A stretch of DNA of 64,000 bases from Colletotrichum lupini (lineage: Eukaryota > Ascomycota > Sordariomycetes > Glomerellales > Glomerellaceae). Below the pieces are notes generated by a model. It was not told the origin of the DNA. It saw only the letters and a program-made list of their open reading frames with translations, and did no database searches. Of the stretch, positions 1 through 31,911 are shown one piece after another. Position numbers and translations under genes: made by a program. Numbering within the stretch: position 1 is the stretch's first letter; each line of letters opens with the position of its first letter. The stretch covers positions 1,984,001 to 2,048,000 of the forward strand of contig NC_064676.1 of NCBI RefSeq assembly GCF_023278565.1. The letters run 5' to 3'.

Positions 1-166
1 GATTAAATAGTAAGTTCGATTTTTAGCTTTAAGTAGGTACTTAAAATTAAGAATAATTAATACTATCCTTTATTATAAAAAGGAATTATTATTTAGCTAA
101 ATTAAATATTCTTCTTTTTATAATAGTAAATACCTCGTTATAATAATTTTATAAAGAAGTTCTAGT
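1..166 (-). mobile_element. Old Ty3/gypsy element, C-terminal tail fragment
   Basis: On the minus strand the reading frame of the fragment at 6489-7322 continues here once copy A and one TAGT are removed. The join gives a chromo-like segment (L-E-G-L-S-K-stop-Y-K followed by L-E-L). The element runs off the left edge of the window, so its 3' LTR is not visible. Frame continuity across the join is seen directly; the chromo-like label rests on resemblance. Confidence 0.75.
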
Positions 167-389
167 TATTACGAAAGGGAACTCGAGGTAGGTCGGAACG
201 TTATTATATTAACCTAATTAACTAAAGACTTAACGTAAAAAGGGAAAAAATAGAATAGTAAGTAGAAGCTAGTAAGCTAGCCCTTTGGGCCTAGCGGTCT
301 AGCTCGTTACGTAATTACTAAGAGCTTAGCCTCGTAGCCTAAGGCTAAGCTATAGGGCCTATAAGGCCTTAGTACTTATTATTATAATA
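167..389 (-). repeat. LTR of copy A (element 3' side)
   Basis: 223 bp. It matches the seven other LTRs in the window apart from C/G to T/A changes. Its inner edge adjoins the purine-rich tract. Confidence 0.92.
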
Positions 390-3300
390 TTACCCCCCCC
401 TCTATACTAGAGGGCGCTATTTATAATATTAAAAAAATAAACTTCTAAATTACTCTTTATTTTAGCGAATCTATAGCTATAATTACTATTATTATATTAT
501 TATCCTCTTTTAATAATAATAAATCGCTAGCCGCGGTAGCTTCTATTTATATATTTAAGTTCCGTAGCGGGCCCTTAGTAGTTAGGTATTAGTAATAGAA
601 CGCTTAGAGCGCCGCTAGTATATATCTAAAGCTCTTTATATTATACTAAGTCGGATCCGTATCGTACCCCTTTTAATCCGCTTAGTACTATAGTTTTCCT
701 TTATATAAGCATAATTTAACGACCTCTAAGACCTCGTACTCTAGTTCGTTATTATTATTAATAATTAGTAATAGCGGGTCTTAGTTCTATTTAAGTAATA
801 GGTCGTTAATAACCTTTTTTAGCTTATTTAAGTAGAAGACCGGGTATACTTAGCTACTTACTAATAGTTCTATAATCTATATACCCCCCTATCCGGTATT
901 AATAATAAGCTATAGCCCGGCTTATAGCTATTATAGTTTATTCGTATCGGCGGACTTTTAATACGAGGTATTAATAAAGACCCGGTCTCTTAGCTTTAGG
1001 TCGTCCGGGCGCTAGTAGTAGTTAGTATACTTTTTATATCGTACCTAAGCGACCTTTATATTACCCTTAGTAGTCTCCTAGGCCTCGTATATCCCTTAGG
1101 CTATACGCTACGTATTAATATAATTTAGCTTTTCTTTTATAGAGCCGAATTAGCGGGTTTATTTAAACTAATTAAAAAAGAGCCGTAGCTAATAACCGAA
1201 TTCTATTTTATATAATAATAGCCCTATAGTCTTACTAAGCTAAGTAGTATAGGTAAAGTCGACCGTAGGTAGTATATTACTTTAGTTATTTTAATATTAG
1301 TTAATTAATAGTCTTAACTATTATAGGATATATTAGTTTAGTACTTCTATTTAGCCGTCTATTTAGGGGTAGTCGGCCGTTAATAGCTATAGCTTAACCC
1401 CGTAAATCTTATAAAGTTCCCTCTAGAAGTTAGAGATAAATTAGGGGCCTTAGTTTAATATAATAGTCTTTAGTAAGCCGAAGATAAGTAGTACCCGTTC
1501 GTAAAATATTTAGCTTATATCTTTTATTATAATAGTTTTATAATAAGGAATAAACATCGCCCTCTTACCTAGGCGGTCTATTACTACCTAAATATTATCG
1601 AATCCTTTTTAATTAGTAGGGATAGTTATAAAGTTAATAAAAATGTGCTACTACGGGTAGTTAGGTACTAAAAGTAGCCTTAGCTCCCCCGGGGGCTTGT
1701 CGCGCGGCTTTTATAATTAGTAATAGGTATAATAGTTCTATATATATTAATAAGTATTTACTATTAGGCCCGGCTAGTAGTATTACTACTTAATTATTTT
1801 TATAACCTTATTATGCCCTAGGTAGGCGAGGAGCTTTTATTTATAGACCTCGCAAATAACTATAATATAAAGGTTCTCTTTTTTAAGTATTACGAGCTTC
1901 CTATTTATTATTAGTAATCCGTTATTTTAAATAAATTAGTACTCGCGCCCTTCGGCCGCTAGCGCTCGTATTAGCGCAAGGGACGCTATAATAAGGTCTT
2001 TATTAAGTTTTAAAATCTTTTTTACTAATAAATACCCTTAGAACTCGTTTTTTAATAAGAGCGAGCTAATTATAAACTATAATTAACTAACTACGGCGCT
2101 TAATAGTGCCTATAGCTCTGCTACGATATTAGGAGATAATAGTCTTAGTAATAAGAGGACTTAGGTCCTATTAGCCTCTTTTAGTACTTATTAAGTACGG
2201 ATATCCTCTATTTTCTATAATAAGGCGTTAGCTAGTACGTTCTCTTTCCCTAGGTAGTAATAGATCTAAAAATTAAAGTCCGTTAGCGTGCCGGCCTAGC
2301 GGGCTTATTATAAGTTAAGTAGGCGCTTAGTTATAAAAAATAGTAATAGCTAATAGTCTATAATAACGTCGAACTTATATTCGTAGTTTATAAGCTCTGC
2401 GCGCTATTTTTTTAAATATAGTATTATTATTAGTATTTCCTTATTATAAATAGCGTAATTAAGCTCTACGCCGCTTATCGTTTTTAAATAAAAAGTTACT
2501 AAGTACTATAACCTATTTTCCTCTTATTATTATAGTAGCGCTCCGGTATATACTAAGTTAGAGGCGTTAGTTTTTAGCCGCGTTAGTAGCTCTAGCTTAA
2601 AATAATAAAAAATTAGCGCTAACGTTAGTACTAGCTTTATAGCCTTAAAGGCCGTCTCGTAGTTAGTATTAAAATTAAAAAGAACTCCCTTATTTATTAA
2701 TTTTATAAGGGGCCTAGCTAAGCGGCCGTAATCCCTTATAAATCTCTTATAGAAGTTATAAAACCTAAGGAAAGACTAAATACCCTTAAGTAATATAAGT
2801 AGCTTCTAATCTCTAACTATAAAGACTTTCTTCTTATTAAGCTATATACTTTTTATAAAAACTACGAAGCCTAGGTACTTTATAAAAGTAATACTAAATT
2901 TATATTTCTTAATATCCGCTTATAAGCCTACTTTTTATAAGCGGTCTAGTACTTTAATAACGTATTCCTAGTACTAGAGGGGGTCGTTTAAAAAGATTAG
3001 GATATTATTTATATACGCTATATAAAAGTTATCTAAGTACTTTATTAGTATCTCGTTTATATATCGTTAGTACGTAATAAGCCCGTTATAGAGCCCGAAG
3101 GGTACTATTTTATACTTATATACCTTATAACGGGTTCTAAACGTTATTAAGTCCTCGGAGGCTAGGTCGAGGCGAATATAATAAAAGGCCTATTTAATAT
3201 TTAGTTTAATAAATACCTTTACTTTACTTAGCCGTACGAGGGTCTTATTAATAAGCGGTAATAAGTAGCAGTCTTTTTTTATAACCTTATTTAGCTTATA

Positions 3301-6265
3301 GAAGTTAATATAAAAGCGTAGACTACTATTATACTTTTTTATAAATAGCGTCGGCGACGCAAAAGGAGCATTACCTAGCTCGATAAATCCTTTTTATAAG
3401 TGCTCTAGTAAATAGGCTCTTATAGCCTTTAGCTCTAGTACTAATTACTTATATAAAGGGTAGTAGGTTAGCTTCTCTTTATTACTATTTAGGAGCTCGA
3501 TTTTATAATTATATAGCTTATAAAGTATAAGTATATCGCTAGCCGCTTTATTAAAAACGTCGGTCTAGGGCCGTAAGTACTTTAGTAAGTTAGTTATTAT
3601 AAGGTTATAAATAACTTAGTTATCGTCGTATAAGGGGTCCGCCTCCTCCTTTTTATTTTCTATAATACGGTCTAGCTTATAGAGTAATATAGAGCCTATT
3701 TTAATATCGTTCTACTTTAGGTTCTTTTTAAATACGGGAGCGTTAATAAAGGTAATATTTATTTATAATACTACTAAGTATAGTTTTTACTATCTAATCC
3801 TCTTTATAGGGGCGATAGTAATACTATTAAGGGCGCGTTCTATTTTCTTTATATTTTTAGCCTTATCTAACTACTATATCTAACGGGCTATTATTTTTAG
3901 TAGGCGTAGTAATATCCTAATTAGCGTGCCCTTCGCTTATTATTACTAAAGCTTTTAGTTATAGCGGGTTATATTTATCTTAAATAAGTCTTATTAGCAA
4001 TCGGCGTCGATTTAGTATTATACGTCGATAACTTCTGGGGTATATAAGTCCTCGATATCCCTAATAATAATAAAGGGCGTTTCTTATAGTAATAGGTCCT
4101 TAGGCTATATTAGCCGTTAGCGGCGAATATTAAGGTTTACCCCGTAGTATTTAAACTACTTTTACTTTAAAATTAGGTCGTAGCGGCTCGTATTAAGCTA
4201 AAAGAGGGGTGCTTTTAAAAAGACCTATCGATTAATATATAGGTTAGCGGTTTATATTATACTAATATTATTTAATCGCTCTTTATTAAACCTAGTAGTA
4301 GGGATTAAGTATAATAATTTATAAAATAGGGCCGCGCAGAACTATTATAATAAAGGGGTTACGCGGTTATTTATAAATTTATACTTATTAACTCCCGTAT
4401 TAAATAAGGCTCTTAGGTAAATTCTATATTTATTAAATACTAATATAAGCTCTATTTTAAGGGGCTAACCCCTTACGAGATCCTATAAGTTTACTAAATT
4501 AATTATTAATTTTCCGTCCTTTCTATACGTATCTCCTAGCTAGGAGTTTATTTTTATTAGGGGGTCTAGTTTTCTAAACCCGACTCTATTTTAATAAGGC
4601 CCGCAGTAGTGTTAATAGTAGTTATAATAGTCTTCGGCTTCTTAGGGTAGTCCTTAGAGATATATTTAGTATTATTATAAATAAAGTAAGTACTATTATC
4701 CTTAAGCTTTTAATATAGGGCTTTAGAAATCGTCTCGCGGGTAGAAGTATAACCTTAGTCCTATTTAGTACTTTTAGTACTTCTATTATTTCCGCTACTT
4801 TTATTATTTCTATTATTTCTATCTAAGGTCTAGTAAGTCTAATTAAAAACTTTAACCGCGCGGTCCTTTATAAAAGGGGGCTATATTACGTTAGTTAGCT
4901 AAGTAACGTACTTAGTATATTTTTAAAAAGTAGCCGTATTATTTAAGTACTTTAATATAGCTTAGTTATGAAGATATATAAGTAGCTTATTATAAAAACG
5001 GCGCTTTTACTAGGACTTTAGAAGCTTATTAATACGCGCGAGCTTAGCGAATATAGAGCGCTTTTAGTAAACGTTTTTAAACGTAATTATAAGTACGTCT
5101 AGCTTATAGCTAGCGTCGTTTATAATAATCGGGCTAATATAAGCTAACTTAAGCTCGTAGAGTAGCTACTTAGCTATAATAATCTCGTTAAAAGTTAGTA
5201 ATAAGTATATAAACTCCGTAGCGCTATTTCTAATCTTATTAATAATATACTCTAAGTAGTACCTATTTATATTATAATTAGCGTTCTTTAAGCGCTTCGT
5301 AATATACTAAAGCTAGTAATCGAACTTAAGGCTAGTATTATTATTTATAAAAATAAGTACGTTAGGTATTTTTTAAAAGCCATAGGTAACGGGATAGGAC
5401 GAGGCTAGAGTAGTCTTATAGCTACCCTACGTTTTTAAATATACTAGCCGCTATTTTAGTATATTAAGAGTAGTAGTATCCTAAATAGAGCTAGCTTAGG
5501 AGCCGTTTTCTAATTACTTTAGCTTTTTAGTTATAGCTATATTATTAATATAAGCTTAAGTAAGGGCTTTTTTTATAATACGGAGCTCTATAATAATAAT
5601 ATACGTAAAGTCGAGGTTTTTATAAGTTATTACGTATAGGTACTTAGTACTATTACTTAGCTAGCTAATAGCGGATACTAAGACCTGCTCTAATTAGTAC
5701 TAAGCGATACGTATTTTTAACTACTATTCGATCTACTTAAGTAGGGTCTTTTCGTCGTTTTTAAAGTATAGCTTTTAAATAAGGTCGAGGTCGATATACT
5801 ACTTAGTATTCTTTTTAAAGAGGATATTATCGTAGATATAAATAGGTAAAGTAAGCTAGTTAGTTACGTTACTAAGGTACGCTAGGCGATCGGCCTAAGT
5901 AGTAAAAAGTAAAAAGCGCTCTATTAGCTAGTTAAATAGTACGACCTCTAGGTCGATAACTAAGAGCTTAGCGCCTTTATTAGGGCCTACGACGCTCTAT
6001 TAGGACTCGTAGAGGCGGCGGCTTTATTAAAAACTATTAATATAAAGGGAGACCTAGCCTCCCTAGCTATATTCTCTAACTATTATATTTAGTAAAGGGG
6101 GTATATATTTAAAGAGTATTAATTACGCTACTTACGTATAATTAATTTAACTAGCTATCGCTTAGCTCTCTTATACGCTTTCTTAATAGGGGTAGCTAGT
6201 AATTAATTAATTAAGATATTATCGTTCTATTTCTAAAGAATAGTTAATTAAGTAATGTTAAGTAG

Positions 6266-6488
6266 TATTACGAAAAGGAACTCGAGGTAGGTCGGAACGC
6301 TATTATATTAACCTAATTAACTAAAGACTTAACGTAAAGAGGGAAAAAATAGAATAGTAAGTAAAAGCTAGTAAGCTAGCCCTTTAGGCCTAGCGGTCTA
6401 GCTTATTACGTAACTACTAGGAGCTTAGCCTCGTAACTTAAGGCTAAGCTATAGGGCCCATAGGGCCCTAGTGCCCACTACCGTAACA
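6266..6488 (-). repeat. LTR of copy A (element 5' side)
   Basis: 223 bp. It ends in gtaaca, the least decayed terminus of the family apart from copy D's outer LTR. It is followed directly by the target duplication TAGT. Confidence 0.92.
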
Positions 6489-7322
6489 TAGTTACTATTT
6501 ATATTATTTACTTAGTCCCTCTAATTATAATAAGAACTATAATTTATTCTTATTTTATTAGACGTTAATAATTTTCTTTAGTAAATTAATAAATAAAATT
6601 ACTATTAGTATTAGTAATACTCGTCCGTAAATATTAAGTAGTAGTACTAGTTCTAAGTAGTTAATTAAGATTATATTATATATTTTTACGTATTAAGATA
6701 AGTCGAGCTTATATACGAGTTATTTAACCCGTTTAAAAATTATAAAAGGCCTAGTATATTATTATAAGTATTTCTTTTTTAGCGTAGTTAATTATAGTAT
6801 ATTATAACCGCGGTATAGTCTTAGTATAATACGTTATCTAACCTCGAAAAATTTAATAAGGCGCTTCTAGTTATAATATAATTTTATTTAGACGGTTATA
6901 ATAATAATAGCATCGTATACTTTAAGTCGTATCTCTAGTTTAGTTAGTAGTTTATCTATTACGTCTATAATTACGTTAATAATATTATTAAGAGTAAATC
7001 CTAAAATAATTTCGTTAGGTAACTTAGTTATTATTACTAATTTATTATTAATCTCGAATTATAATTAGGGAATACTACTGGGCTATTAGTTTAGAGATTC
7101 TAGCGATATAAAGTATATTCGTAATACTAACTTAATTATAAAATTTATCTATTTAATCTAGCTATTAGTCTAGGGATAGTAGGCTATTAAGTATAATAGT
7201 TTATTACCGTACTTATTTTATATATATTTTTATATTATAAAAAGGAATTTAGGGTTTCTATTACTTAGGATTACTTTTAGTAATCCCTAGTTATAGCGCT
7301 ATAAAAAGTTTATTAATAACGT
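6489..7322 (-). mobile_element. Old Ty3/gypsy element, integrase C-half and chromo-like region
   Basis: Read on the minus strand from 7322 down, the decayed frame gives integrase core features: a degraded S-D-R-N-P-K-F block, then Y-G-N-K-L-L-Y-L-I-A-Y-Y-P (from Y-x-x-A-Y-H-P), then L-P-N-E-I-I-L-G-F-T, then the R-P-F-I-I...Y-K-L-D segment typical of the post-integrase GPF/Y-like region. Internal stops are at former CAA/CAG/TGG codons. It continues in frame from the fragment at 13650-15379 across copy B, and into the fragment at 1-166 across copy A. Confidence 0.85.
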
Positions 7323-7546
7323 TATTACGGTAGTAGGTATTAGGGCCCCTGTGGGCCCCGTGGCTTAGCCTTAGGCTACGAGGCTAAGCTCTTAGTAGTT
7401 ACGTAACGAGCTAGACTGCTAGGCCTAAAGGGCTAGCTCGCTAGCTTCTACTTACTATTCTATTTTTTCCCTTTTTATATTAAGTCTTTAGTTAATTAGG
7501 TTAATATAGTAGCGTTCTGACCTACTTTAAGTTCCTTTTCGTAATA
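7323..7546 (+). repeat. LTR of copy B (5')
   Basis: 224 bp, starting tattacgg (from TGTTACGG) and ending cgtaata. The internal sequence then begins ctacttaacg, with no TGG-type primer-binding site visible. Confidence 0.92.
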
Positions 7547-10500
7547 CTACTTAACGTTACTTAATTAACTATTCTTTAGAAATAAAACGATAATATCTTA
7601 ATTAATTAACTACTTATTATATTAACTAGCTACCCCTATTAAAAAAGCGTATAAGAGAGCTAAGTAATAGCTAACTAAATTAATTATATATAAGTAGCGT
7701 AATTAATACCCCTTAAATATATACCCCCTTTACTAAATACGATAGTTAGAGGATATAGTTAGGGAGGCTAGGTCTCCCTTTATACTAACGGCTTTTAGTA
7801 AAGTTACTATTTTTACGAGTCCTAATAGAGCGTCGTAGGCCCTAATAAAGGCACTGAGCTCCTAGTTATCGACCCTAAGGTCGCGCTATTTAACTAGTTA
7901 ATAGAGCGCTTTTTACTTTTTATTACTTAGGCCGATTACTTAGCGTACCTTAGCGACGTAGCTAACTAGCTTACTTCGCTTATTTATATCTATAATAATA
8001 TCCTCTTTAAAAAGAATACTAAGTAGTATATTAACCTCGATATTATTTAAGAACTATATTTTAAAAACGATAAAAAGACCCTGCTTAAATAGATCGAATA
8101 GTAGCTAAAGATGCGCATTATTTAGTATTAATTAGAGTAGGTCCTAGCTTTTATTATTAGCTAGCTAAGTAATAGTACGGAGCGCCTATACGTAATAACC
8201 CGTAAGAACCTCGACCTTATATATATTACTATTATAGAGCTCCGTATTATAAAAGAAGCCCTTACCCGAGCTTATATTAATAATATAACTATAGCTAAAA
8301 AACTAAAATAATTAGAGAACGGCTCCTAGGCTAGCTCTATTTAAGATATTACTACTTTTAGTGCGCTAGAGTAATAGTTAGTATATTTAAAAACGCAAAG
8401 TAGCTACGAGACTACTCTAGCCTCGTCCTATCTTATTACCTACGGCTCTTAGAAAATACCTAACGTACTTATTTTTATAAATAATAATACTAGCCTTAAG
8501 TTTAATTACTAGCTCTAGCGTATTATAAAGCGCTTAAAAAATACTAACTATAGTATAAATAGGTACTACTTAGAGTATATTATTAATAAGATTAGAGGTA
8601 GTACTACGGAGTTTATATACTTAATACTAACCTCTAACGAGATTATTACGGCTAAGTAGTTACTTTATAAGCTTAAGTCGGCTTATACTAGCCTAACTAT
8701 TATAAACGACGCTAATCGTAAGCTAGATATACTCGTAATTATACTTAAAAACGTTTATTAAAAGCGCTCTATATTTACTAAGCTCGCGCGTATTAGTAAG
8801 CTTTTAAAGTCTTAATAAAAGCGCCGTTTTTATAATAAGCTACTTATATATTTTCGTAACTAGGCTATATTAAAGTACTTAGATAATACGGCTACTTTTT
8901 AAAAATATACTAAGTACGTTACTTAGCTAGTTAACGTAATATAGCCCCCTTTTATAAAGGACTGCTTAGTTAAGGTTTCTAGTTAAACCTGCTAGACCTT
9001 AAGTAAAAATAATAAAAATAGCGGAAATAATAGAGGTATTAGAAGTATTAAATAGGACTAAGGTCGTACTTCTACCTATAAAACGATCCCTAAAGCCCTA
9101 TATTAAAAACTTAAGGATAGTAGCGCTTATTTTATTTATAACGATACTAAATATATTTCTAAGGACTACCCTAAGAAGCTAAAGACTACTATAGCCGCTA
9201 TTAACGCTACCGAGGGCCTTACTAAGATAGAGTCGGGTTCGGAAAACTAGAACTTTTAATAAAAGTAAACTCCTAGCTAGGGGATATATATAAAAAGGAC
9301 GAAAGATTAGTAATTAATTTAATAAACTTATAGGATCTTATAGGGGGCTAGCCCTTTAACATAGAGCTTATATTAGTATTTAATAAATATAGAATTTGCC
9401 TAAGAGCCTTACTTAATACGGGAGCTAATAAGTACGGATTTATAAATAACCGCGTAACCCCTCTATTATAACGGTTCTGCGCAGCCCTATTTTATAAATT
9501 ATAACGCCTAATCCTTACTACTGGATTTAATAAAGAGCGATTAAATAATACTAACGTAGTATAGACCGCTAACCTATATATTAATTAACGGGTCCTTCTA
9601 AAAACACCCCTCTTTTAGCTTAATACAGGCCGCTACGACCTAATCCTAAGGTAAAAGTAGTTCGAATACTACGGGGTAAACCCTAATATTCGCTACTCAC
9701 GTTTAATATAGCTAGAGGACCTACCGTTATAAAAAACGCCCTTTATTATCGTTAGGGATATCGAGGACCTATATACCCTAGAAGTTATTAACGTATAATA
9801 CTAAATTAACGCCGACTATTAGTAAGACCTATTTAAAATAAATATAACCCGCTATAACTAAAAGCTTTAGTAGTAGCGGGCAAAGGGTATACCGATTAAG
9901 ATATTACTATACCCGCTAAAAATAATAGCCCGTTAAATATAGCGGTTAGACGAGGCTAAGAATACGAAGAAGATAGAACGTGCTCTTAATAGTACTAATA
10001 TTACCCCTATAGAGAGGGCTAGGTAGTAAAAACTATACTTAGTAATAATATAAATAGATATTACCTTTATTAGCGCTCCCGCTTTTAAAAAAAACCTAAG
10101 GTAGAACGACGTTGAAATAGGCTCTATATTATTTTATAAGCTTAACTATATTATAAAAAATAAAAAGGAGGAGGTAGACCTTTTATATAACGACGACTAG
10201 GTTACTCATAACTTTATAATAACGAACTTATTAAAGTATTTGCGGCCCTAGACCGACGTTTTTAATAAGGCTACTAGCGATATACTAGCGCTTTATAGGC
10301 TATATAACTATAAGATTAAGCTCTTAAATAGTAGTAAAGAGAAGCTAACTTACTACCCTCTATATAAGTAGTTAGTACCCGAGCTAAAAGCTATAAGGGC
10401 CTATTTACTAAAATATTTATAAAAAGGATTTATCGAGCTAAGTAATACTCTTTTTATATTACCGACGCTATTTATAAAGAAGTATAATAGTAGCTTACGC

Positions 10501-13425
10501 TTTTATATTAACTTCCGTAAGCTTAATAAGGTTATAAAAAAAGACCGCTACTTATTATTATTTATTAATAAGACCCTCGCGTAGCTAAGTAGGGCGAAGG
10601 TATTTACTAAGCTAAATATTAAATAGGCCTTTTACTATATCCGACTCGACCTAGCCTCTAAGGACTTAACGATATTTAAAACCCGCTATAGGGCGTATAA
10701 GTATAAAGTAGTACCTTTTAAACTTTATAATAAGCTTATTACGTACTAACGATATATAAACGAGATATTAATAGAGTACTTAGATAACTTCTATATAATA
10801 TATATAAACGATATCTTAATCTTTTTTAACGACCCCCTCTAGTACTAAGAGTACGTTATTAAAGTACTAGACCGCTTATAGAAAGTAGGCTTATAAGCGG
10901 ATATTAAGAAGTACGAATTTAGCGTTATTTTTACGAAGTACCTAGGCTTTATAGTTTTAATTAAAAGTATATAGCTAGATAAGGAAAAAGTTTTTATAAT
11001 TAAAGACTAAAAACTACTTATATTACTTAAGGGTATTTAGTTTTTCCTCGGGTTTTATAACTTTTATAAGAGGTTTATAAAGAATTACGGCTACTTAGCT
11101 AGGCCCCTTACGAGGCTAATAAGTAAGGGAGTTCTTTTTAACTTTAGCGCCGGTTATAAAATAGCCTTTAAGGCTATAAAGCTAGCGCTAACGTCGGTAC
11201 TTATCTTTTATTACTTTATACTAAAGCTATTAACGCGGTTAAAAATAGATATTTCTAACTTAATATACGCCGAGGCGTTATTATAGTAATAAGAGGATAA
11301 TAGGTTATAATACTTAGTAGCCTTTTGCTTAAAGATAATAAGCGGCGTAGAGCTTAATTATACTATTTATAATAAAAAAATACTAATAATAGTACTATAC
11401 TTAGAAAAATAGCGCGCGGAGCTCGTAAGTTATAAATATAGGTTCGACGTTATTATAAACTATTAGCTACTACTATTTTTTATAATTAAGCGCCTATTTA
11501 ACTTATAATAAGCCCGCTAGGCTAGTATGCTAGCGGACTTTAATTTTTAAATCTACTACTACCCGGAGAAGGAGAATATACTAACTAACGCCCTTTTATA
11601 AAAAATAAAAAATATTTATACTTAGTAAGTACTAAAAAAGGCTAATAGGACATAAGTCCTTATATTACTAGGACTACTATTTCTTAATATTATAGCGGAG
11701 CTACGGGCGCTACTAAGCGCCGCCGTTAGCTAACTATAGCTTATAATTAGCTTACTTTTATTAAAAAACGAGCTATAGGGGTACTTATTAATAAAAAAGA
11801 TTCTAAAGCTTAATAAGGACCTTATTATAGCGTCTCTCGTGCTAATACGAGCGCTAATAACTAAAGGACGCGAGCGCTAGTCTATTTAAAACGACGGATT
11901 ATTAGTAATAAATAGGAAACTCGTAATACTTAAAGAGGAGAACCTCTATATTATAGTTATTCGCAAGGTTTACGAATAGAAACTCCTCGCCTACCCGGGG
12001 CGTAATAAGGTCGTAAAAATAATTAAATAGCGGTACTACTAGCCGGGCCTAATAATAGATACTTATTAGTACGTTTAGAACTACTATACTTATTACTAGT
12101 TATAAAAGCTGCGTAATAAACCCCTAGGGGAGCTAAAACCGCTACTAGTACCTAACTACCCGTAGTAGTATATCTCTACCGACTTTATAACTATCCTTAT
12201 TAATTAAAAAGGATTTAATAATATATAGGTAGTAGTAGACTACCTAGGTAAAAGGGCGATATTTATTCCTTATTATAAGACTATTATAGCGAAAAATATA
12301 AGCTAGATATTTTATAAGCGGGTGCTACCTATCTTCGGCCTATTAGAAACTATTATATCGGACCGAGGCCCCTAATTTATTTTTAACTTCTAAGGGGAGC
12401 TTTATAAGATTTGTAAGGTTAAGTTATAGCTATTAACGGCGGATTATTTATAAATAGACGGCTAAATAGAGGTACTAAACTAGTATATCCTATAGCGGTT
12501 AAGATTACTAGTTAACTAATACTAAGATAATTAGAGTAATATACTATTTATAGTCGACTTTACTTATACTACCTAGCTTAGCAAGACTACGGGGCTATTA
12601 TTATATAAAATAGAATTCGGTTACTAGCTACGGCTTTTTTTTAATTAGTCTAAGCGAACTTACTAATTCGGCTTTACGAAAAAAAAGCTAAACTATACTA
12701 ATACGTAGTATATAGCTTAGAAAATATACGAGGCCTAGGAGATCGCTAGAGGTAATATAAAAGTTACTTAAGTATAATATAAAAAGTATACCGATTACCG
12801 CCGGCGCCCGGACGACTTAAAAATAAGAGACCAGGTCTTTATTAATACCTCGTATTATAAGTCTGCTAATACGAATAAACTATAGTAGCTATAGGCCGGC
12901 CTATAGCCTATTATTAGTACTAAATAGGGGGGTATATAGGTCGTAGAATTGTTAATAAGTAGCTAAGTATACCTAGTTTTTTATTTAAATAAGCTAAAGA
13001 AGGCTACTAACGACCTATTACCTAGGTAGAACTAAGAGCCGTTATTACTAATCGTTAATAATAATAGCGAGCTAGAGTACGAGGTCTCTAAAGTAATTAA
13101 GTTATATTTATATAAAGGAAAGCTATAATACTAAGTAGATTAAAAAGGATACGATATAGATCTAACGTAGTACGATATAAAGAGCTTTAAGTATGCGCTA
13201 GCGGCGCTATAAGCGTTCTATTATTAATACCTAATTACTAAAGGTCTATTACGGAACTTAAATATATAAATAAAAGCCGCCGTAGCTAGCGATTCGCTAT
13301 TACTAAGGGACGACGATAATACGATAATAGTAATTATAACTATAGATTTACTAAAATAAAGGGTAATTAAGAGGTTTATTTTTCGGCGCTGCGGATAGCG
13401 CCCTTTAATATAGAGGGGGGGGTAA

Positions 13426-13649: not shown

Positions 13650-15379
13650 ACGTCGCCTATTCTTTTATTATTATTATTTTATATTTAGGTATTAAACTAA
13701 TCTATTTAAATATCTTATTAGTTATTAATAAGATATAGTTATATTTTTTTTTAAAGTTAGTAGTTTTAAAATAAAATTAATAATAATTATATAATAGGGA
13801 TATAATAACGGTATAATAGGTTATATACTACTATATAATTAGTATATTTTAAGTTTTATCATTAAGTACGTTAAGTAACCTTAAATTTAGCGCTTTAGAT
13901 TCTATATAAGTCGTAATATATAATATTTAAATAGTATTATAGCTATTTTATCGTAGCCTATATAGTTTCCTCCGTAAGCCGTTTTAAAAATATTAGCGTA
14001 GTATATTTAAAGGATATATAATCGGTTATATATACTATACGTTACTTTTTATAATAATCCTTTATATAAAAGAAATAGTAATTTAGCGCAGTTCTTTTTA
14101 AGTAGTATTATATTATTATAGATTATCTTAATAATAGATTTAAAAACTAGGTCTATGTCGTAGCCCTATTAGATTTTTTTTTTAAAACTCGGTACTATTT
14201 TAAGAAAAATTATACTAATACTATCTTACGTTACTAGTAGTATAATATTATTTTCTAATTACTAGTTATTAGTTATATATATTAGTAGTAAACTAATTTA
14301 TATAGTATGGGTATTATTAGTTAGGAAAACTAATTGTGCCTATATCTATATTACCTAATCGTTTAGTACGTTATTTAATAAAATATCTAAGCCGCTATTT
14401 ATTAAATTTAGCTCGTTATATCCCGAGTCGGCTAGTAGTTTAAATAGCGCGTCTAGTATAATATATTCTTTACTTAGCTTATATATAACTTAAATATTAA
14501 ATTAGCTAGCGTACTCTATTACTCTAATTAGTTTTTTATTATTAGTACTATTCGCCGTAATATTAGCGATATTTAATTATCGTTATAGGCTTATAATAGC
14601 AAAATAATTAGTAATAATTATCGTAGTAAGTTTTAATATAGAGATCTAGTAGTTATATTTTTTTAAAACTTAGACAAAACTTAGTATTTCTATTTCTATT
14701 AGCTAATATCTTTTTTTAGGCTCGGATAGGGTTTATAATAAGTATAATACTAGTTAAATAGTACCCTTTAATAGTAGTTTAGTTAGCTTCCCTTTATTAT
14801 TTATAATTATTTATAGTACTTCTAGCTTAATATAATAAGTTATAGTATTAATACCTATTACTATTATATTAAAATTAATAAATAGTAGTCGTATTAGATT
14901 ATAATAGTATAGTTTAATATTATTTAGTAAGTTACTACGTACTTTTTCGAACGCATATCGTTCTTTATTAATAATTATAATTAGAACTAATTTTATTTAT
15001 TATTTGCGCCCGGGATCCTTATTAGTAATTTGTTTACTATTTTTAGTCTTTTATTATAATAAATCCGTCTTTAGTTACTCTAGTAGTTTTATAATAAATA
15101 TATATCCCGGGACGTTATTATAGAGATACCTTGCGAGGTTAATAAATATTTCGAAGTTACGGAGGGTCGTTAGATATTTAAGTTATTTAAGAATATTTAA
15201 CTTTTTTATTATAATAAATAAGCCGAAAGCGTCGACGTGTTATTTAAAAACGGTAGTACTTGGAAATCTTATAAAGGTCTTTAATAGGTTAATATTAATA
15301 TTTTTTTATTATAATAAATAAAAGACGGCGTCGAGGTTAGTAATATGCTCCTCTAATATATTAGATCTAATAATAGTAT
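13650..15379 (-). mobile_element. Old Ty3/gypsy element, RT C-half, RNase H and integrase N-half
   Basis: Minus strand from 15379 down. The frame opens with the RT segment after YxDD (I-I-R-S-N-I-L-E-E-H, then L-D-A-V-F and H-V-D-A-F-G-L). Next comes an RNase H region ending in a K-L-S-K-E-Y-I-I-L-D-A-L block (expected K-P-G-K...P-D-A-L-S). The integrase zinc region and core start follow (Y-A-N-I-F-K-T-A-Y-G-G-N-Y-I-G-Y-D, then I-I-I-N-F-I-L-K-L), ending at K-E-stop-A-T where copy B is inserted. Order and spacing fit one pol gene. Three palindromic tracts tttattataataaa occur near 15053, 15207 and 15308. Confidence 0.87.
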
Positions 15380-15602
15380 TATTACGGTAGTGGGCATTAG
15401 GGCCCTATAAGCCCTATAGCTTAGCCTTAGGCTACGAGGCTAAGCTCTTAGTAATTACGTAACGAGCTAGACCGCTAGGCCTAAAGGGCTAGCCCGCTAG
15501 CTTTTACTTATTATTCTATTTTTTCCCTCTTTATATTAAGTTTTTAGTTAATTAAGTTAATATAATAGCGTTCTAACCTACCTTAAGTTCCCTTTTATAA
15601 TA
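15380..15602 (+). repeat. LTR of copy C (5')
   Basis: 223 bp, beginning tattacggtagtgggc and ending ttttataata. It matches the other family LTRs. Confidence 0.92.
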
Positions 15603-18600
15603 CTACTTAACGTTACTTAATTAACTATTCTCTAAAAACGGAATAATAATATCTTAATTAATTAATTATTAACTACCCCTATTAAAAAAGCGTATAAAAA
15701 AGCTAAGTAATAGTTAATTAAATTAATTATATATAAGTAATATAATTAATACACCCTAAATATATACCCCTTTTACTAAACGTAATAATTAAAGGATATA
15801 GCTAAGGAGGCTAAGTCTCCCTTCGTACTAACGGTTTTTAATAAAGTCGCCGCTTTTATAAGTTTTAATAGAGCGTTATAAGCCCTAATAAAGGCGCTAA
15901 GCTCTTAATTATTAACCCTAAAGTTATACTATTTAACTAGTTAATAGAGCGCTTCTTACTTTTTATTACTTAGGCCGATTACTTAGCGTACTTTAATAAC
16001 GTAGCTAATTAGCTTACTTTGCTTATTTATATTTATAACAATATCTTTTTTAAAAAGAATACTAAGTAGTATATTAACCTCGACCTTATTTAAGAGCTAT
16101 ATTTTAAAAACAACGGGAAGACCTTACTTAAGTAGATCGAATAGTAGCTAAAGATATATATTACTTAGTACTAATTAAAATAGGTCCTAGCTTTTATTAT
16201 TAGTTAATTAAATAATAATACTTAGTACTTATATATAATAACTTATAAAAACCTCGACTTTATATATATTACTACTATAGAGCTCCGTATTATAAAAAAA
16301 GCCCTTACCCGAGCCTATATTAATAACGTAGCTATAACTAAAAAACTAAAGTAATTAGAGAACGGCTCTTAGACTAGCTCTATTTAGGATATTACTACCC
16401 TTAGCGCGCTAAAGTAGTAGCTAATATATTTAAAAACGTAAAATAGCCGTAAGACTACTTTAGCCTCGTCCTATCCTATTACTTATAGCTCTTAAAAAAT
16501 ACTTAACGTACTTATTTTTATAAGTAATAATACTAGCCTTAAGTTTAACTATTAGCTTTAGTATATTACGAAGCGCTTAGAGAATACTAATTATAATACG
16601 AATAAGTACTATTTAGAGTATATTATTAATAAAATTAGAGGTAGCGCTACGGAATTTATATACTTAATACTAATTTTTAATAAGATTATTATAGCTAAGT
16701 AGCTATTTTACGAGCTTAAGTCAGCTTATACTAACCTAATTATTATAAATAACGCTAGTTATAAGCTAGACATACTTACGATTATATTTAAAAACGTTTA
16801 CTAAAAGCGCTCTATATTCGCTAAGCTCGCGCGTATTAATAAGTTTTTAAAGTTTTAATAAAAGCGCCGTTTTTATAATAAACTACTTATATATTTTCGT
16901 AACTAAGTTATATTAAAGTATTTAAATAATACGGCTACTTTTTAAAAATATATTAAGTACGTTACTTAGTTAACTAACGCGATATAGCCCCTTTTTATAG
17001 AGGACCGCCTAGTTAAGGCTTTTAACTAGACTCGCTAGACCTTAGGTAAAAGTAATAAAAGTAATAGAAGTAATAGAAATAATAAAGGTACTAGGGGTAC
17101 TAAATAAGACTAAGGTCGTACCTCTACCCACAAGACGATCCCTAAAGCCCTATATTAAAAACTTAAGGATAGTAGCGCTTATTTTATTTATAATAATACC
17201 GGATATATTTTTAAGGACTATTTTAAAAAGCCGAAGACTATTATAATTATTATTAATATTATTACGGGCCTTATTAAAATAGAATTAGGTTTAGAAAACT
17301 AAAACCCTTAGTAAAAATAAACTCTTAATTAAGGGATACGTATAAAAAAGATAAAAGATTAGTAATTAATTTAATAAACTTATAGGATCTTATAGGGGGC
17401 TAGCCCTTTAACATAGAGCTTATATTAGTATTTAATAAATATAGAATTCGCCTAAGAGCCTTACTTAATACGGGAGCTAATAAGTACGGATTTATAAATA
17501 ACTACGTAACCCCTTTATTATAATAGTTCTGCGCGGCCCTATTTTATAAATTACTATACCTAATCCCTATTACTAAGTTTAATAAAGAGCGATTAAATAA
17601 TATTAGTATAGTATAGACCGCTAATTTATATATTAATTAATAAGTCTTTTTAAAAGCACCCCTCTTTTAGCTTAATACGGGCTATTACGACCTAATCCTA
17701 GGGCAAAAGTAGTTCGAATATTACGGGGTAAACTTTAATATTTGCTATTAATAACTAATATAGCCTAAGGACCTACCGCTATAAAAAATACCCTTTACTA
17801 TTATTAGGGATATCGAGGACCTATATACCCCAGAAGTTATTAATATATAATACTAAATCGATACTAATTATTAATAGGACCTATTTAAGATAGATATAAC
17901 CCGTTATAACTAAAAGCTCTAATAGTAGTAGGTAAAGGGTATATTAATTAAGATATTATTATACTTATTAAAAACGACGGCTTACTAAATATAATAATTA
18001 AATAAGGTTAAGAATATAAAGAAGATAGAACGCGCCCTTAACGGCACTAATATCGCCCTTATAAAAAGGGCTAGGTAATAGAAACTATACTTAGTAGTAG
18101 TATAAATAGATATTACTTTTATTAACGCTCTTAATTTCGAAAAGAACTTAAGGTAGAACGACGTCGAAATAGGCTTTATATTACTTTATAAGCTTAACTA
18201 TATTATAGAGAATAAGAAGGAGGAGGTAGACCCCTTATATAATAATAACTAGGTTATTTATAACTTTATAATAGCGAACTTATTAAAATATCTATAGCTT
18301 TAAACCGACGTTTTTAATAAGGCGGCTAGTAATATATTAGTACTTTATAGGCTATATAACTATAAAATCGAGCTCTTAAATAGTAATAAAGAGAAGCTAA
18401 CTTATTACCTTTTATATAAATAGTTAGTACCGGAGCTAGAGGCTATAAGAGCCTATTTACTAAAGTATTTATAAAAAGGATTTATTAAGCTAAGTAATAC
18501 TCTTTTTATATTACCGACGCTATTTATAAAAAAGTATAATAGTAGTCTACGCTTTTATATTAACTTCCGTAAGCTTAATAAAGTTATAAAAAAAGACCGC

Positions 18601-21476
18601 TACTTATTACTACTTATTAACGAGACCCTTATGTAGCTAAGTAGGGTAAAAGTATTTATTAAACTAGATATTAAGTAGGCTTTTTACTATATTTACCTTA
18701 ACCTAGCTTTTAAGGACTTAATAATATTTAAAACCTACTACGGGGTATATAAGTATAAAGTAATACCCTTCGGGCTCTATAACGGGCCTATTATATATTA
18801 ATAATATATAAACGAAATATTAATAGAGTACCTAGACGACTTTTATATAGTATATATAAATAATATTTTATTTTTCTTAAACAACCCCCTCTAGTACTAG
18901 GAGCACGTTATTAAAGTGCTAGACTACTTATAGAAAGTAAGCTTATAAGTAAATATTAAGAAGTACGAATTTAGCGTTATTTTTATAAAATACCTAGGCT
19001 TCGTAGTTTTTATAAAAAGTATATAGCTTAATAAAGAGAAAGTCTTTATAATTAGAGATTAAAAGCTACTTATATTACTTAAGGGTATTTAGTCTTTTTT
19101 TAAGTTTTATAACTTTTATAAGAGATTTATAAAGGACTATAGCTACTTAGCTAGGCCCCTTACGAAGCTAATAAATAAAGGAGTTCTTTTTAACTTTAAT
19201 ACTAACTACGAGACGGCTTTTAAAGCTATAAAGCTAGCGCTAATATTAATACTTATCTTTTACTACTTTAGGCTAGAGCTACTAACGTAGTTAGAAACTA
19301 ACGCCTTTAACTTAATATACGCTAGAGCGCTATTATAATAATAAAAAGATAATAGGTTATAATACTTAGTAGCCTTTTATTTAAAAACGATAAGTAGTAT
19401 AGAGCTTAATTATATTATTTATAATAAGGAAATACTAATAATAATACTATACTTAGAAAAATAGTACGCAGAGCTTATAAGCTATAAGTATAAGTTCGAC
19501 GTTATTATAAATTATTAACTATTATTATTTTTTATAACTAAGCGCTTACTTAACCTATAATAAGCCCGCTAGGCTAGTATACTAATAGACTTTAATTTTT
19601 AAATTTATTACTACCTAGGGAAAGAGAACGTACTAGCTAATACCCTCTTATAAAAAACGGAGAATATCCGTACTTAGTAAGTACTAAAAGAGGCTAATAG
19701 GACTTAAGTTCTCTTATTACTAGGACTATTATCCCCTAATATTATAATAGAGCTATAAGTATTATTAAGTATTATAATTAGTTAATTATAGCTTATAATT
19801 AGCTCGCTCTTATTAAAAAACGAGCTCTAGGGGTACTTATTAATAAAGAAGATTTTAAAGCTTAATAAAGACCTTATTATAGCGTCCCTTGCGCTAATAT
19901 AAGCACTAATAACCAAAGGATACGAGCGCTAATTTATTTAAAATAATAAATTATTAATAATAAATAAGAAGCTCGTAGTACTTAAAAAAAAGAACTTTTA
20001 TACTATAATTATTTACAAGGTCTATAAGTAAAAGCTCTTTACTTATTTAGGGCGTAATAAAGTTATAAAAATAATTAAATAATAATACTATTAGCCGGGC
20101 CTAACGGCAGATACTTATTAATACGTACGGAACTATTATACTTATTACTAATTATAAAAGCCGCATAATAAGCCCCTAGGGGAGCTAAGGCTATTTTTAA
20201 TACCCGACTACCCGTAATAATATATTTTTATTAACTTTATAATTATCTTTATTAACTAAAAAGGATTTAATAATATTTAAATAGTAATAGACTACTTAAA
20301 TAAGAGGGCAATATTTATTCTTTATTATAAAACTACTATAATAAAAAATATAAGCCAGATATTTTACGAATAGATACTACCTATCTTTAGCTTATTAAAA
20401 ACTATTATATTAGACCGAGGCCCCTAATTTATCTCTAACTTCTAAGGGGAGCTTTATAAGATTTATAGGGTTAAGTTATAATTATTAATAACTAACTACC
20501 CCTAAATAAATAGCTAAATAGAGGTACTAAACTAGTATATCTTATAGTAGTTAAGATTACTAGTTAACCGGTACTAAAATAACTAAAGTAATATACTACC
20601 CGTAGTTAATTTTATTTATACTACCTAGTTTAGTAAGACTATAGGGTTATTATTATACGAAGTAAAATTCGGTCGTTAGCCACGGCTCTCCTTTAACTAG
20701 TCTAAGTAAACCTACTAATTTAGTTTTATAAAAGAGAAGCTAAACCGTACCGACGCGTAGTATATAACCTAGGGAATATATAAGGCTTAGGAGACTACTA
20801 GGGGTAATATAAAAGTTATTTAAATACGATATAAGAGGTATACTAACTGCTACTAGCGCCCGGACGACCTAAAGCTAGGGGACTAGGTCTTTATTAATAC
20901 CTCGTACTAAAAGTCTACTAATATAAATAAATTATAATAACTATAAGCCGGGCTATAGCCTATTATTAGTACTAAATAAGGGGGTATATAAATTATAGGA
21001 CTATTAGTAAGTAGCTAAGTATACCCAGTTTTTTATTTAAATAAGCTAAAAAAGGCTATTAATAACTTACTACTTAGGTAGAACTAAGACCCGCTATTAC
21101 CGATTATTAATAATAATAATAAACCGGAGTACGAGGTTTTAGAAGTTATTAAATTATACTTATATAAAGGAAAACTATAATACTAAGTAAATTAAAAAGG
21201 ATATAATACGGACTTAACTTAGTATAATATAAAGAGTTTTAAGTATATACTAGCGGTGCTCTAGGCGTTTTATTACTAATACTTAATTATTAAGGGCCCG
21301 CTATAAAACGTAAATATATAAATAAAAGCCGCTATAGTTAATAATTTATTATTACCGAGGGATAACGATAATACGATAATAGTAATTACGGCTATAGATT
21401 TACTAAAATAAAAAGTAATTTAAAGGTTTATTTTTAATACTATAGATAGCGCCCTCTAGTATAGAGGGGGGGGTAA

Positions 21477-21699
21477 TATTACGGTAATAAGTATTAGGGC
21501 CCTATAGGCCCTATAGCTTAGCCTTAAGCTACGAGGCTAAGCTCTTAGTAATTACGTAACGAGCTAGACCGCTAGGCCTAAAGGGCTAGCCCGCTAGCTT
21601 TTACTTATTATTCTATTTTTTCTTTTTTTACGTTAAGTCTTTAGTTAATTGGGTTAATATAGTAGCGTTCCGACCTACCTCGAGTTCCCTTTTATAATA
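21477..21699 (+). repeat. LTR of copy C (3')
   Basis: 223 bp, preceded by the g-rich purine tract at about 21463-21476. Confidence 0.92.
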
Positions 21700-24600
21700 A
21701 TATTGTTATAATATAATTAGGCTAAGACGTTTATAAAAAGGGCGTCTATTTATCGTTAAATATAGGCGTTTAAGTTTTTATAACCTATTATAGTATAGTT
21801 AAAAATATACTATCCGTTAAGTATAATAATTATAAAAGCGTTACGAGATTTGGGGTATACTTATTATTAATAGTAAAACGAACTTACGTTTATAATTATA
21901 ATATAGCGCTTATCTTTAATAATATTAAAGATATTATCTTACGATTATATTAAGTAGCTATTTAGGAGTACGATTTTATTCAGTTTATAAATATTAATAA
22001 TTATATAGCCTTTTTATTTTCTATTAATTTTATACTATATTATAAAAACTAAGAATAAAAACGGTATTAAGTTTATAATACGATATAATCGTCCTTAGTT
22101 AATAAGTATATTTAGTTATTTTTAAATAACTTCCTTTTTATTAACTCTTAAATAGTAAATCTTCCTCGTCTTAAGGACCTCCTTTTCTTAGCCTAGTTCA
22201 AGGGTAATTCGTATTTATTAGTTTTTAAGAATATTAATAAAGCCGGTATTTTTAAAAACGTCTTAGAAATAGTTTAATAGGGGTATAAAGTAGTCTACTT
22301 TATTAGCTCCGTTATATATCGTAATTCTGGTTATATATTTCTTTATTTAGTTTATTAACTAGACCTTTATTAACTTAGAAATTATAATTTTATTTAGCTT
22401 ATTATCTATACTACCGAAATTAGTTACTATACTTACTTAGTTATTATTAACTTATTAATAATAAGTATTTTTAATAATTAAATTAAGGGAGCCGACCTTA
22501 GCTTTTATAGGGATTATAATAAGTTTATTAGTATTATTAATAATTATAATATAATATATATTCTCGTTAGTTAATAATACGTAGGATACGAACTTATTAT
22601 ATAGTACTAGCTTAAATAGTAAGTTTTTATTAATTATTACGGAATATAAAACTAAGAGTAGGGAAGATATATATAGTAGTATAATTATTATCGTAGCCGA
22701 TTAGATCGTAGCTTTAATAAGTAGTTGATATTTAGTATTATAAAACGCCGGGACGTTAATATTATATAATTAAATAATAATAGTAGAGGTAGTAAAGTCG
22801 ATTTTAAATTTTTTTAGTTTTATAATATCGGTACTAATTAATATATTTATTTATAAGCTATTAATTAGCGATATTTCTTATATAAAGTATGCTAAGGATA
22901 GTATGCTATTATTTATAATAGTACCTTTAATATAAAATAAAAAGACTATATAGTCTTATATTTAGTATATATCTATTCCAATACCTCTAATAGTTAGAGA
23001 AACGGCGCGTTATTTAATTTTTAAAAATAAAAAATTAGTTATAATTTATTATTACTTAGTAATTGATTAACTATAGCCTATATTAATATAAACCTCTTTT
23101 TTAATATCGTTATTAAAAGAAGTTATAAGTTGTAGTTATATAATAATAGATATTTTTATTCCGAATCCTATTTTAATATTTAGCTTAGAATCCGTAATAA
23201 AAGTAATAATAAGTAATTTAGCTTTATTAATAGCTAGAGTATTTATTATTAACAAAGTAATTACCGTGTCGTCCTTTATTATTAATATAATATTATTAAG
23301 TACGCTTTTCCTTAATCCTTATCGTTTAGTAACTAAAGAATCCTAAAAAAAGCGTTAGCCGTTAGTATTTATAGTCTATATTAAAAACTTATATTATATG
23401 CGTTACGGAGATATTAAAATAGTTTATTATTTAAAGCGAATTACTTATTATATTTTTTATAATCGTATATACTTAAAGAGCTAATAATAAAAAATACTAC
23501 GTCCCTAATTATAAGTACTAGATTATAGTTTAGAGGTCCGTAGTCTGTATTATTAAAATTATTATTTATATTTAGTTCTTTTAGTTAGTCGTTACTATAA
23601 TACGCCTACTTTAAATTCTAGTCCTCGTTTTATTTTAATAGCTCTTCGTCCTATTTTTTTAATACGTAGGCTTATATATATATATAACGTAATTAGTTAT
23701 AATTAGAACGGTTTAAATAGTAGTTATTATATTATTAATATAGTTTATTAAGGTTATTACTAGGATTATAAGTATACTTATTAAATTATAATAGCGCTAT
23801 AGAACTTCTTATTTAGAGAGGTTAGTATGGCTAAGACTAAGTACTTTATTATATTTATTACGTAATATTAGTTATTTAGCTATTAGCCTATATCGTAAGT
23901 TAATTATTTAACTAATTACCTCTTTAGAAATTACTATTTTTATATAAATTATTATACTAAGTAAGTAGCTTATAGTTATTTAGATAATTAAAGTCGTTAT
24001 ATTAATTATAATTAGACTACTTATTAAACTATTAGTAATTATAGTTTAGTTAGTAATTATTAAACTCCGGTTTTTGCGATAAATAGAGAGTATTTTAATA
24101 TTCTCTTTTTTATAAAGCTAACCTTAGTTCGGGGACTAAGTCGTTATTATATAAAGAGCTCGTTATTATTTATTATATTTAGTAATTATTTTATATAGAA
24201 TATTTATCCTTAGTTATGCGAATTAAAATACTCTCTCTATTATCGAGGTAGTTTAAGAACTAAGCTAGGGTTATTATTATCGTTAGCTTTTTTATTTATA
24301 CTTAGATTTTACTATCGAGAGCTTTAAAAATAACTCTAAGTTATACTTAAACGTTATTAATCTCTATATTTTATACGTTACGAATTATTATTTATATAAA
24401 TAATCTAATTATATATTCGTTAACGAGGTCCTTAATTATAAGTTTTTATATGTATAATATATTAAGGGCTTCGGAGGAATTTTATTTAAACCGCTTTTAT
24501 AAAGTTTTAGTAATAACTTATATTTTATAGTTAAATAGAGCTAGTTATTTTAGTTATATAAGCTTAGTAGTATATTATACTAACGCTATGCTTAGTAAGT

Positions 24601-25471
24601 AAAATAACTATACCTCCCTAACGGCTACGTTACCTCTAGTTATTACGAAATACTAGAGCTTATTATAAAAAATATAGACGTTAATATAAGTAGTAAACTT
24701 AGTACTAGAGGTAATACTATATTTTAAATTATTATAACTAATTAAATTAAAATATTTAATCTCCTTTAGCTTTAGGGGTATAAACTAATTATTATTAAGT
24801 CTAGGAGTTAATTATTAGCTATTGTCGTTATTATTATTTATATTATTTATAGTTAAGGCTACTATTTTAGTAATTTGGGTAATTATATTAATAAAGAGAT
24901 TATTAATCGGGTTATTATTACTTATAGGCTAGTTATTATTATTTATATTACTATTTACTATTTTAGGAAGCTTTATTAACTCGTCGTAGTTATTAAGTAG
25001 AGAAGGGTATAAGTAGTAGTTATTTAGGTTAATAATAAGACTTTTTAAATCGAAGTAGTTACTTAGGTTAGTAATACGTATTATTATTAATACCGAAGGT
25101 ATAATAAGTAACGACTATAATTAAATAAGAGTCGTTAAATAAGTATTATTAAATAACGTTAGTTAATAATTAAACTTTATAATATAGATTTATTAGATTA
25201 CTATATTAACTCCTTATACCGATTTTAAAAATTCAATAGGGTAGTCTAATTTAACTTTACTAGCGTAAGTATTAATAATTTAGTTAGCTTATTATAATAC
25301 TTACGTTACGTAACGTTAGTTAGTATCTATAATTCTTATTACATAGGGGTAGTTCGTGTTATTAATATAAAAACGTAGTAATTATTTAGCTTTTAGCTTA
25401 GTTATTATTAGTTATATTTTTATAGGGGTAGAGTAAGGATTGTTTAGTAAATTAAATCTTAATTATAATAA
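21700..25471 (-). mobile_element. Old Ty3/gypsy element, 5' part: gag-like region, C2H2 finger, protease-like domain, RT N-half
   Basis: Minus strand. At 23396-23461 a decayed finger has the exact C-x2-C-x12-H-x4-H spacing, with every ligand now Tyr (RIP turns Cys and His codons into Tyr). Near 22990-22700 a protease-like domain reads R-G-I-G...N-I-L-I-S-T-D-I. Below 22350 an RT N-half follows (R-K-I-Y...G-R-L-Y-R-I-I-N, then Y-K-L-N-K-I-V-L, then I-I-G-Y-K-N-L-N-A-Y-I), stopping at Y-Y-N-N at 21702-21713, where copy C is inserted. I recognise this order from fungal gypsy elements with a finger-bearing gag. I could not place the element's 5' LTR: 24.6-25.47 kb is RIP-decayed, with no clear motif. 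Confidence 0.83.
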
Positions 25472-31793: not shown

Positions 31794-31911
31794 ATAAGTT
31801 AATAAAAAAGAAATTCCTAGTACTGGGTTATATTATAGGTTGTGCTATTAGATTACTAAGGGTAAAAGTAGGGTTAATATAATATGTTAAGTAGTAGTTA
31901 ATTCTTCTAGG

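What the first reader, a model, noticed from the sequence alone, without database searches (positions are those of the whole stretch)
1..25471. One old retroelement cut into four pieces by three insertions of a second family, with frame restored at each join
The gaps between copies A, B and C, read on the minus strand, carry consecutive domains of a single Ty3/gypsy pol: finger, protease-like and RT N-half (25.4-21.7 kb), RT C-half, RNase H and integrase N-half (15.4-13.65 kb), integrase C-half and chromo-like region (7.3-6.5 kb), tail (below 166). Removing each insert and one 4-bp duplication restores the frame three times. This turns 25 kb of apparently featureless AT-rich DNA into an ordered history and shows two distinct families.
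Basis: partly seen in the sequence, partly recalled or inferred. Interest (0 to 1): 0.8.

Follow-up and report, generated by a model that had tools for sequence, protein, structure and literature searches.

The report
Nested, RIP-mutated fungal retrotransposons
One fungal jumping gene landed in ordinary DNA and later took four insertions of a second jumping-gene family, all of it heavily mutated by the fungus's repeat defence; the layout is clearly real, but this kind of nesting is common in such fungi.

Summary
Confirmed and extended. O runs from its 5' LTR (31854-32013) to a 3' LTR 2 kb left of the window: 34,030 bp as it stands, 8,723 bp by arithmetic without inserts, with the same 5-bp duplication (CTGCA) at both ends. 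Each 6.3-kb insert has its own 4-bp duplication. In 13 of 17 other O copies tested, every site whose flanks were held is empty (11/11, 11/11, 13/13, 11/11; 0 in 12 mismatched controls). RNase H, integrase and SH3 signals stand in the expected order; RT is weak.

"Old" is true only relative to the inserts: the AT-richness is RIP, since insert LTR pairs differ by 89 transitions and 0 transversions. The host is a Colletotrichum of the acutatum complex.

A lead: O sits in GC-rich DNA on both sides in 7 of 8 copies examined, while family-2 flanks are AT-rich and RIP-mutated (18 of 20), suggesting a pioneer-then-settler order. The kind is known; interest is modest.

The parts
32014..32018 (-). 5-bp target duplication of element O (CTGCA); its partner is at contig C3:1981979-1981983, left of the window
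   Evidence: both ends read
31854..32013 (-). 5' LTR of element O (160 bp, begins TGCCACAC); outer half little mutated
   Evidence: RIP index of 31798-32013 is 0.79
31798..31853 (-). Piece of O between its LTR and insert D (leader region)
   Evidence: site D 11 of 11
25472..31793 (-).
21704..25471 (-). Piece P1 of O: presumed gag region and pol up to part of the RT (RT by one weak match)
15380..21699 (+). Insert C, family 2; duplication GTAT at 15376-15379 and ATAT at 21700-21703 (differs by one transition)
13654..15379 (-). Piece P2 of O: rest of RT, RNase H, first part of integrase; one base shorter than 9 of 15 listed relatives
7323..13649 (+). Insert B, family 2; duplication ACGT at 7319-7322 and 13650-13653
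6493..7322 (-). Piece P3 of O: rest of integrase and Tf2-type SH3 region, then chromo-like sequence (by eye)
167..6488 (-). Insert A, family 2; duplication TAGT at 163-166 and 6489-6492
1..166 (-). Start of the O tail; continues 2,017 bp left of the window to the 3' LTR (contig C3:1981984-1984000)

Best explanation
An 8.7-kb Ty3/gypsy-type LTR retrotransposon (O) integrated into GC-rich DNA of a Colletotrichum chromosome and left a 5-bp duplication. Later, four copies of a second Ty3/gypsy-type family (6.3 kb, LTR about 225 bp, 4-bp duplication) integrated independently into O at four sites, two in each orientation. Repeat-induced point mutation (RIP) removed nearly all CpA from both families. 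The result is 25 kb of AT-rich DNA whose pol frames are full of stops. Shown: nesting, duplications, empty sites, RIP signature, order of RNase H, integrase and SH3. Inferred: that O was already RIP-mutated and heterochromatic when family 2 arrived, and that this attracted family 2.
For: Empty sites in every tested copy holding both flanks, against 0 in 12 control pairings. Contiguous alignment over all four sites. Duplications for all four inserts and for O; 5-bp duplications in 6 of 6 other O copies read at both ends. Domain order. RIP: (CpA+TpG)/(ApC+GpT) is 0.02-0.10 in P1-P3 and the inserts, against 1.06-1.21 in the right flank and 1.2 in the left. Insert LTR pairs: 89 transitions, 0 transversions over 893 aligned positions.
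Against: RT in P1 and both integrase halves rest on weak profile matches (E 0.0035 to 0.016); Pfam found no RT in P1 (0 of 12) and no integrase domain in P2 or P3. P2 has a length change, so the frame is not preserved along all of O. Of the 17 other O copies, four (including the visibly interrupted ones) were not tested for empty sites.
Confidence: 0.96

Rival explanations
1. Segmental duplication or rearrangement brought family-2 copies and O fragments together, rather than independent insertions.
For: Four copies of one family in one 8.7-kb element is a strong cluster: with 129 first-look candidates and 15% of the genome as assumed target, P of four or more in one given copy is 7e-6, or 1.3e-4 over 18 copies.
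Against: Each copy has its own, different 4-bp duplication and lies between exactly consecutive O sequence. B differs from the other three by 39-55 transversions over 6.3 kb, C from A and D by 22 and 26. A and D are close (6 transversions) but sit at different O sites.
Confidence: 0.02
2. The gaps hold fragments of several unrelated elements that only look consecutive.
For: Individual domain scores are weak.
Against: Eighteen genomic places hold P3, and 11 to 13 copies per site hold the neighbouring pieces as one stretch.
Confidence: 0.01
3. Decay by age rather than RIP made this DNA AT-rich.
For: Frames full of stops; GC 0.22-0.33. Between the copies, the remaining variable C sites are mostly CpT and CpG, not CpA (743 and 690 against 73 of 1,659 in family 2). 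The O LTR pair shows one transversion among 29 differences (slices a few bases off).
Against: CpA and TpG are nearly gone from P1-P3 and the inserts and normal in the flanks, so CpA is exhausted rather than spared. P1 of O: 454-495 transitions against 4-11 transversions in each of 10 pairs. Insert LTR pairs: 0 transversions.
Confidence: 0.01

Closest known systems
Ty3/gypsy (Metaviridae) LTR retrotransposons of fungi, chromovirus type (PMC3248453, passages read)
   Same: LTRs, short target duplications, RNase H before integrase, Tf2-type SH3 region; sequence matches to Ty3 Gag-Pol in O and in family 2 (E 1.7e-18)
   Different: Heavily RIP-mutated. In O the pol frame seems to run on for up to about 1.2 kb after the integrase region, with no convincing Pfam match. 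The chromodomain is not confirmed by profile in either family.
RIP-mutated AT-rich repeat regions of Colletotrichum (PMC6180176 and PMC5576322, passages read)
   Same: RIP indices of LTR families in the same direction (PMC6180176); AT-rich, gene-poor
   Different: Those passages report strong genome-wide RIP or GC bias for C. graminicola and C. orbiculare but only subtle bias for C. truncatum, C. higginsianum and C. scovillei. Here one island is resolved insertion by insertion, with the host element's own ends found.

Membership tests
Ty3/gypsy LTR retrotransposon (element O) | Two LTRs, outer ends TG...CA, target duplication | tested here: met
   TGCCACAC at the 5' end, CCCGGCA at the 3' end, CTGCA on both sides; 5 bp in 6 of 6 other copies read
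Ty3/gypsy LTR retrotransposon (element O) | RNase H before integrase, SH3 region after it | tested here: met
   RNase H 11 of 11 members; Ty3 1121-1210 then 1213-1442; SH3_Tf2-1 9 of 11
Ty3/gypsy LTR retrotransposon (element O) | RT before RNase H | tested here: inconclusive
   one PDB match at E 0.0035; Pfam 0 of 12
Ty3/gypsy LTR retrotransposon (element O) | gag with zinc finger, protease | tested here: inconclusive
   no Pfam match in P1; low-stop frames only
Chromovirus (O and family 2) | chromodomain at the integrase C-terminus | tested here: inconclusive
   O: chromo only by eye; family 2: HP1 chromodomain 1ap0 at E 0.42, Pfam 0 of 4
Ty3/gypsy LTR retrotransposon (family 2: A-D) | LTRs, target duplication, RT-RNase H-integrase order | tested here: met
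   D: RT 6.8e-20, RNase H 3.1e-11, zinc-binding 0.0034 in one frame; Ty3 integrase 1.7e-18 for a profile of A-D; duplications
RIP | C-to-T transitions with loss of CpA in repeats, flanks spared | tested here: met
   remaining between-copy variation is mostly at CpT and CpG
RIP | acts in the sexual cycle and needs the RID methyltransferase | not tested
   RID was not sought in this genome

The most novel reading that the evidence does not exclude
A two-step succession builds heterochromatin islands in gene-rich DNA. O is a pioneer that integrates into GC-rich euchromatin; RIP turns each copy into a small AT-rich island; family 2 is a settler whose integrase homes to such islands. Here it grew one 8.7-kb island to 34 kb, while the 32 kb to the right and 8 kb to the left stayed GC-rich.
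Probability: 0.45. Interest if true: 0.5.

Novelty: new member of a known kind. Interest (0 to 1): 0.25.

Why it matters
It turns 25 kb of seemingly featureless DNA into an order of events with every end accounted for. The contrast in flanks between the two families is a testable clue to how AT-rich compartments are seeded and grow in plant-pathogenic fungi. The RIP load on the inserts also means that RIP, which acts before meiosis, struck after they arrived, in a group treated as largely asexual (PMC11645255, passages read).

Tried and rejected
Pfam on single-frame reads of P1 gave nothing, so profile comparison with solved structures was used. The C-terminal tail of O gave no Pfam family (one of eight members matched GHL15 at E 0.1, taken as chance). 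The loose empty-site test passed control pairings in AT-rich DNA and was replaced. In one search the slice for the 3' duplication of O was set five bases off and printed the wrong five letters; the duplication rests, and the O LTR-pair count (28 transitions, 1 transversion, 152 positions, 13 gap columns) is rough for the same reason. In one search the P2 slices were loosely set, so I use it only for the remark that the missing base falls in the last tenth of P2 in 3 of 3 relatives compared. The 3' flank of the C5 copy of O lies inside a family-2 copy and is not a flank measurement. Dating in years was not attempted: zero transversions gives only an upper limit. Literature: search listings, and passages of PMC3248453, PMC6180176, PMC5576322, PMC11645255 and PMC10787394. 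I saw no description of this locus there, which is not a claim that none exists.

Full report
WHERE IT IS. The window is C3:1984001-2048000 of a 63,443,975-bp assembly with 12 contigs. A host gene in the GC-rich part (DNA topoisomerase I, window 43750-45903) is 98% identical to that of Colletotrichum phormii and 89% or less to the next listed species. So the host is a Colletotrichum; that C. phormii belongs to the acutatum complex is recalled. C. lupini assemblies range from 54.5 to 63.4 Mb and C. filicis has 62.96 Mb (PMC11645255, passages read), so C. lupini is likely; this is inference, not a test.

THE INSERTS. Four copies of one 6.3-kb LTR retrotransposon family ("family 2") lie at 167-6488 (-), 7323-13649 (+), 15380-21699 (+) and 25472-31793 (-). 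They are 83-88% identical to each other. Each has terminal repeats of about 225 bp and its own 4-bp duplication: TAGT/TAGT, ACGT/ACGT, GTAT/ATAT, ATAA/ATAA. Copy D carries RT (E 6.8e-20), RNase H (3.1e-11) and an integrase zinc-binding signal below Pfam's cut-off (0.0034) in one frame. The integrase part of the four copies, as a profile, matches Ty3 Gag-Pol at 1.7e-18, though Pfam named nothing in 0 of 4 members.

THE HOST ELEMENT. The gap pieces P1 (21704-25471), P2 (13654-15379), P3 (6493-7322) and the start of the tail (1-166), together with 31798-32013 right of D, belong to one element, O. Twelve other copies match P1 over nearly its full length, 15 other copies match P2, and 18 places, this one included, hold P3, one of them split into two rows. 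In the strict empty-site test the two 60-base flanks of a site were contiguous in 11 of 11, 11 of 11, 13 of 13 and 11 of 11 copies for sites A, B, C and D, counting only copies whose fetched DNA held both flanks. Thirteen of the 17 other copies were tested; the four not tested include the visibly interrupted ones. Twelve mismatched pairings gave 0.

ENDS OF O. The 5' LTR is window 31854-32013 and the 3' LTR lies left of the window at C3:1981984-1982143. The outer ends read TGCCACAC and CCCGGCA. The duplication CTGCA stands at both ends of this copy, and 5-bp duplications stand at both ends of 6 of 6 other copies read. O therefore spans 34,030 bp here. Taking away the four inserts with one duplication each (25,307 bp, plain arithmetic) leaves 8,723 bp. 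The two families differ in LTR, length and duplication size (5 against 4 bp). Three O copies compared with window 1-36000 matched only the O pieces, apart from a few bases at the edges.

DOMAINS, PIECE BY PIECE. With X at stops, P2 gives RNase H in 11 of 11 copies (best 4.1e-6) and P3 gives the Tf2-type SH3 domain in 9 of 11 (best 6.2e-5). The window's own pieces alone score only 0.017 and 0.013, below Pfam's cut-offs. Profiles of P2 and P3 match consecutive parts of Ty3 Gag-Pol, 1121-1210 and 1213-1442 (E 0.016 and 0.013). The end of P1 matches one PDB chain called Enzymatic polyprotein (8r0s, E 0.0035; that this is a plant-pararetrovirus RT is recalled), but Pfam sees no RT there (0 of 12). 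The finger and protease could not be shown. A chromodomain-like stretch at the P3/tail boundary is seen only by eye.

FRAMES. By arithmetic on the frames, the P1 frame continues into P2, and the P3 frame continues into the tail (the latter with little power: 4 stops against 7 and 7 in about 55 codons). At the P2/P3 join the best whole-piece frame of P2 is off by one. P2 is one base shorter than 9 of 15 listed relatives; the other six differ by -3 to +4. Three relatives compared place the missing base in the last tenth of P2. Read by eye, the last stretch of P2 is in the frame that continues into P3. So the join looks clean and the length change is separate. The antisense strand also has a low-stop frame in P2 and P3 (34 and 16 stops, against 42 and 25 on the sense strand), so the strand is fixed by the domain matches, not by stops.

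TAIL. After P3 the pol frame stays relatively free of stops for about 1.2 kb in 4 of 7 other copies (C1, C2, C4, C8) and for less in C5, C6, C7 and the window copy. For C1 and C2 there are 22 and 21 stops in the first 1,200 bases, against 77 and 76, and 48 and 46, in the other two frames. An antisense frame is about as open over part of this stretch. If the sense frame is real it is a C-terminal extension of up to 400 residues, chromo-like start included. No Pfam family explains it.

RIP, NOT AGE. (CpA+TpG)/(ApC+GpT) is 0.02-0.10 in P1-P3 and the inserts, 0.79 in 31798-32013, 1.06-1.21 in the GC-rich DNA to the right and 1.2 to the left. The LTR pairs of A, B, C and D differ by 22, 20, 19 and 28 transitions and by no transversion in 223-224 aligned positions each. 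The O LTR pair shows 28 transitions and 1 transversion in 152 positions (slices slightly off). P1 of four other O copies and the window differ pairwise (10 pairs) by 454-495 transitions and 4-11 transversions in 3.77 kb. Variable C sites among the four inserts are mostly CpT and CpG (743 and 690 of 1,659; CpA 73), as expected if CpA is already exhausted, though it also shows that other contexts were hit. O is older than its inserts by logic, but not old in an absolute sense. The inserts were mutated after they landed, because their two LTRs, identical at insertion, now differ.

A PATTERN BEYOND THE FINDING. O copies lie in GC-rich DNA (GC 0.52-0.57) on both sides in 7 of 8 copies examined, the window copy included. 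The eighth (C5) has GC 0.39 on its 5' side, unexplained, and runs into a family-2 copy on its 3' side. Ten family-2 copies from the top of the list (20 scored of 213 candidates) have AT-rich DNA (GC below 0.35) on 18 of 20 flanks of 500 bases, 8 of 10 on both sides; the two exceptions have GC 0.45 and 0.43. One of these ten is the copy beside the C5 copy of O, so its flank is O itself. Isolated O copies do not show RIP in their flanks, so spreading is unlikely to explain the family-2 flanks. Another O copy has a family-2 match inside its gap (C2:4478695-4485521). Four inserts in one O copy exceed a uniform expectation even if only 15% of the genome is a target (P 7e-6 for a given copy, 1.3e-4 over 18). 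The target size is assumed, 129 is a first-look count of which 40 were scored, and the locus was picked because it looked striking. Integration of chromodomain elements into heterochromatin is known (Gao et al. 2008, seen only as cited in PMC3248453).

VERDICT. A well-proved nested insertion with one more insert than reported. It is of a known kind; the pioneer-settler reading is the only part that reaches beyond the ordinary.

Noticed in passing
C3:1981984-1984000 (L025:7984-10000) and window 1-166: The pol frame of element O continues for about 1.2 kb past the integrase/SH3 region in 4 of 7 other copies, a possible C-terminal extension of up to 400 residues with no convincing Pfam family; an antisense frame is about as open.
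   Followed up: partly
window 31798-32013 and L025:7984-8143: RIP fades in the outer halves of both O LTRs: the outer halves keep CA dinucleotides while the inner halves are mutated (read by eye).
   Followed up: no
G000:C5:4196388-4202707 and G000:C2:4478695-4485521: Two further O copies have a family-2 copy, one at the 3' end and one inside.
   Followed up: partly
G000:C10:1169332-1182720: Four RT matches within 14 kb, two with the frame length seen in family 2, suggest another dense nested island.
   Followed up: no
window 167-31793: A and D differ by only 6 transversions over 6.3 kb while B differs from the rest by 39-55, so at least two source lineages of family 2 fed this locus.
   Followed up: partly
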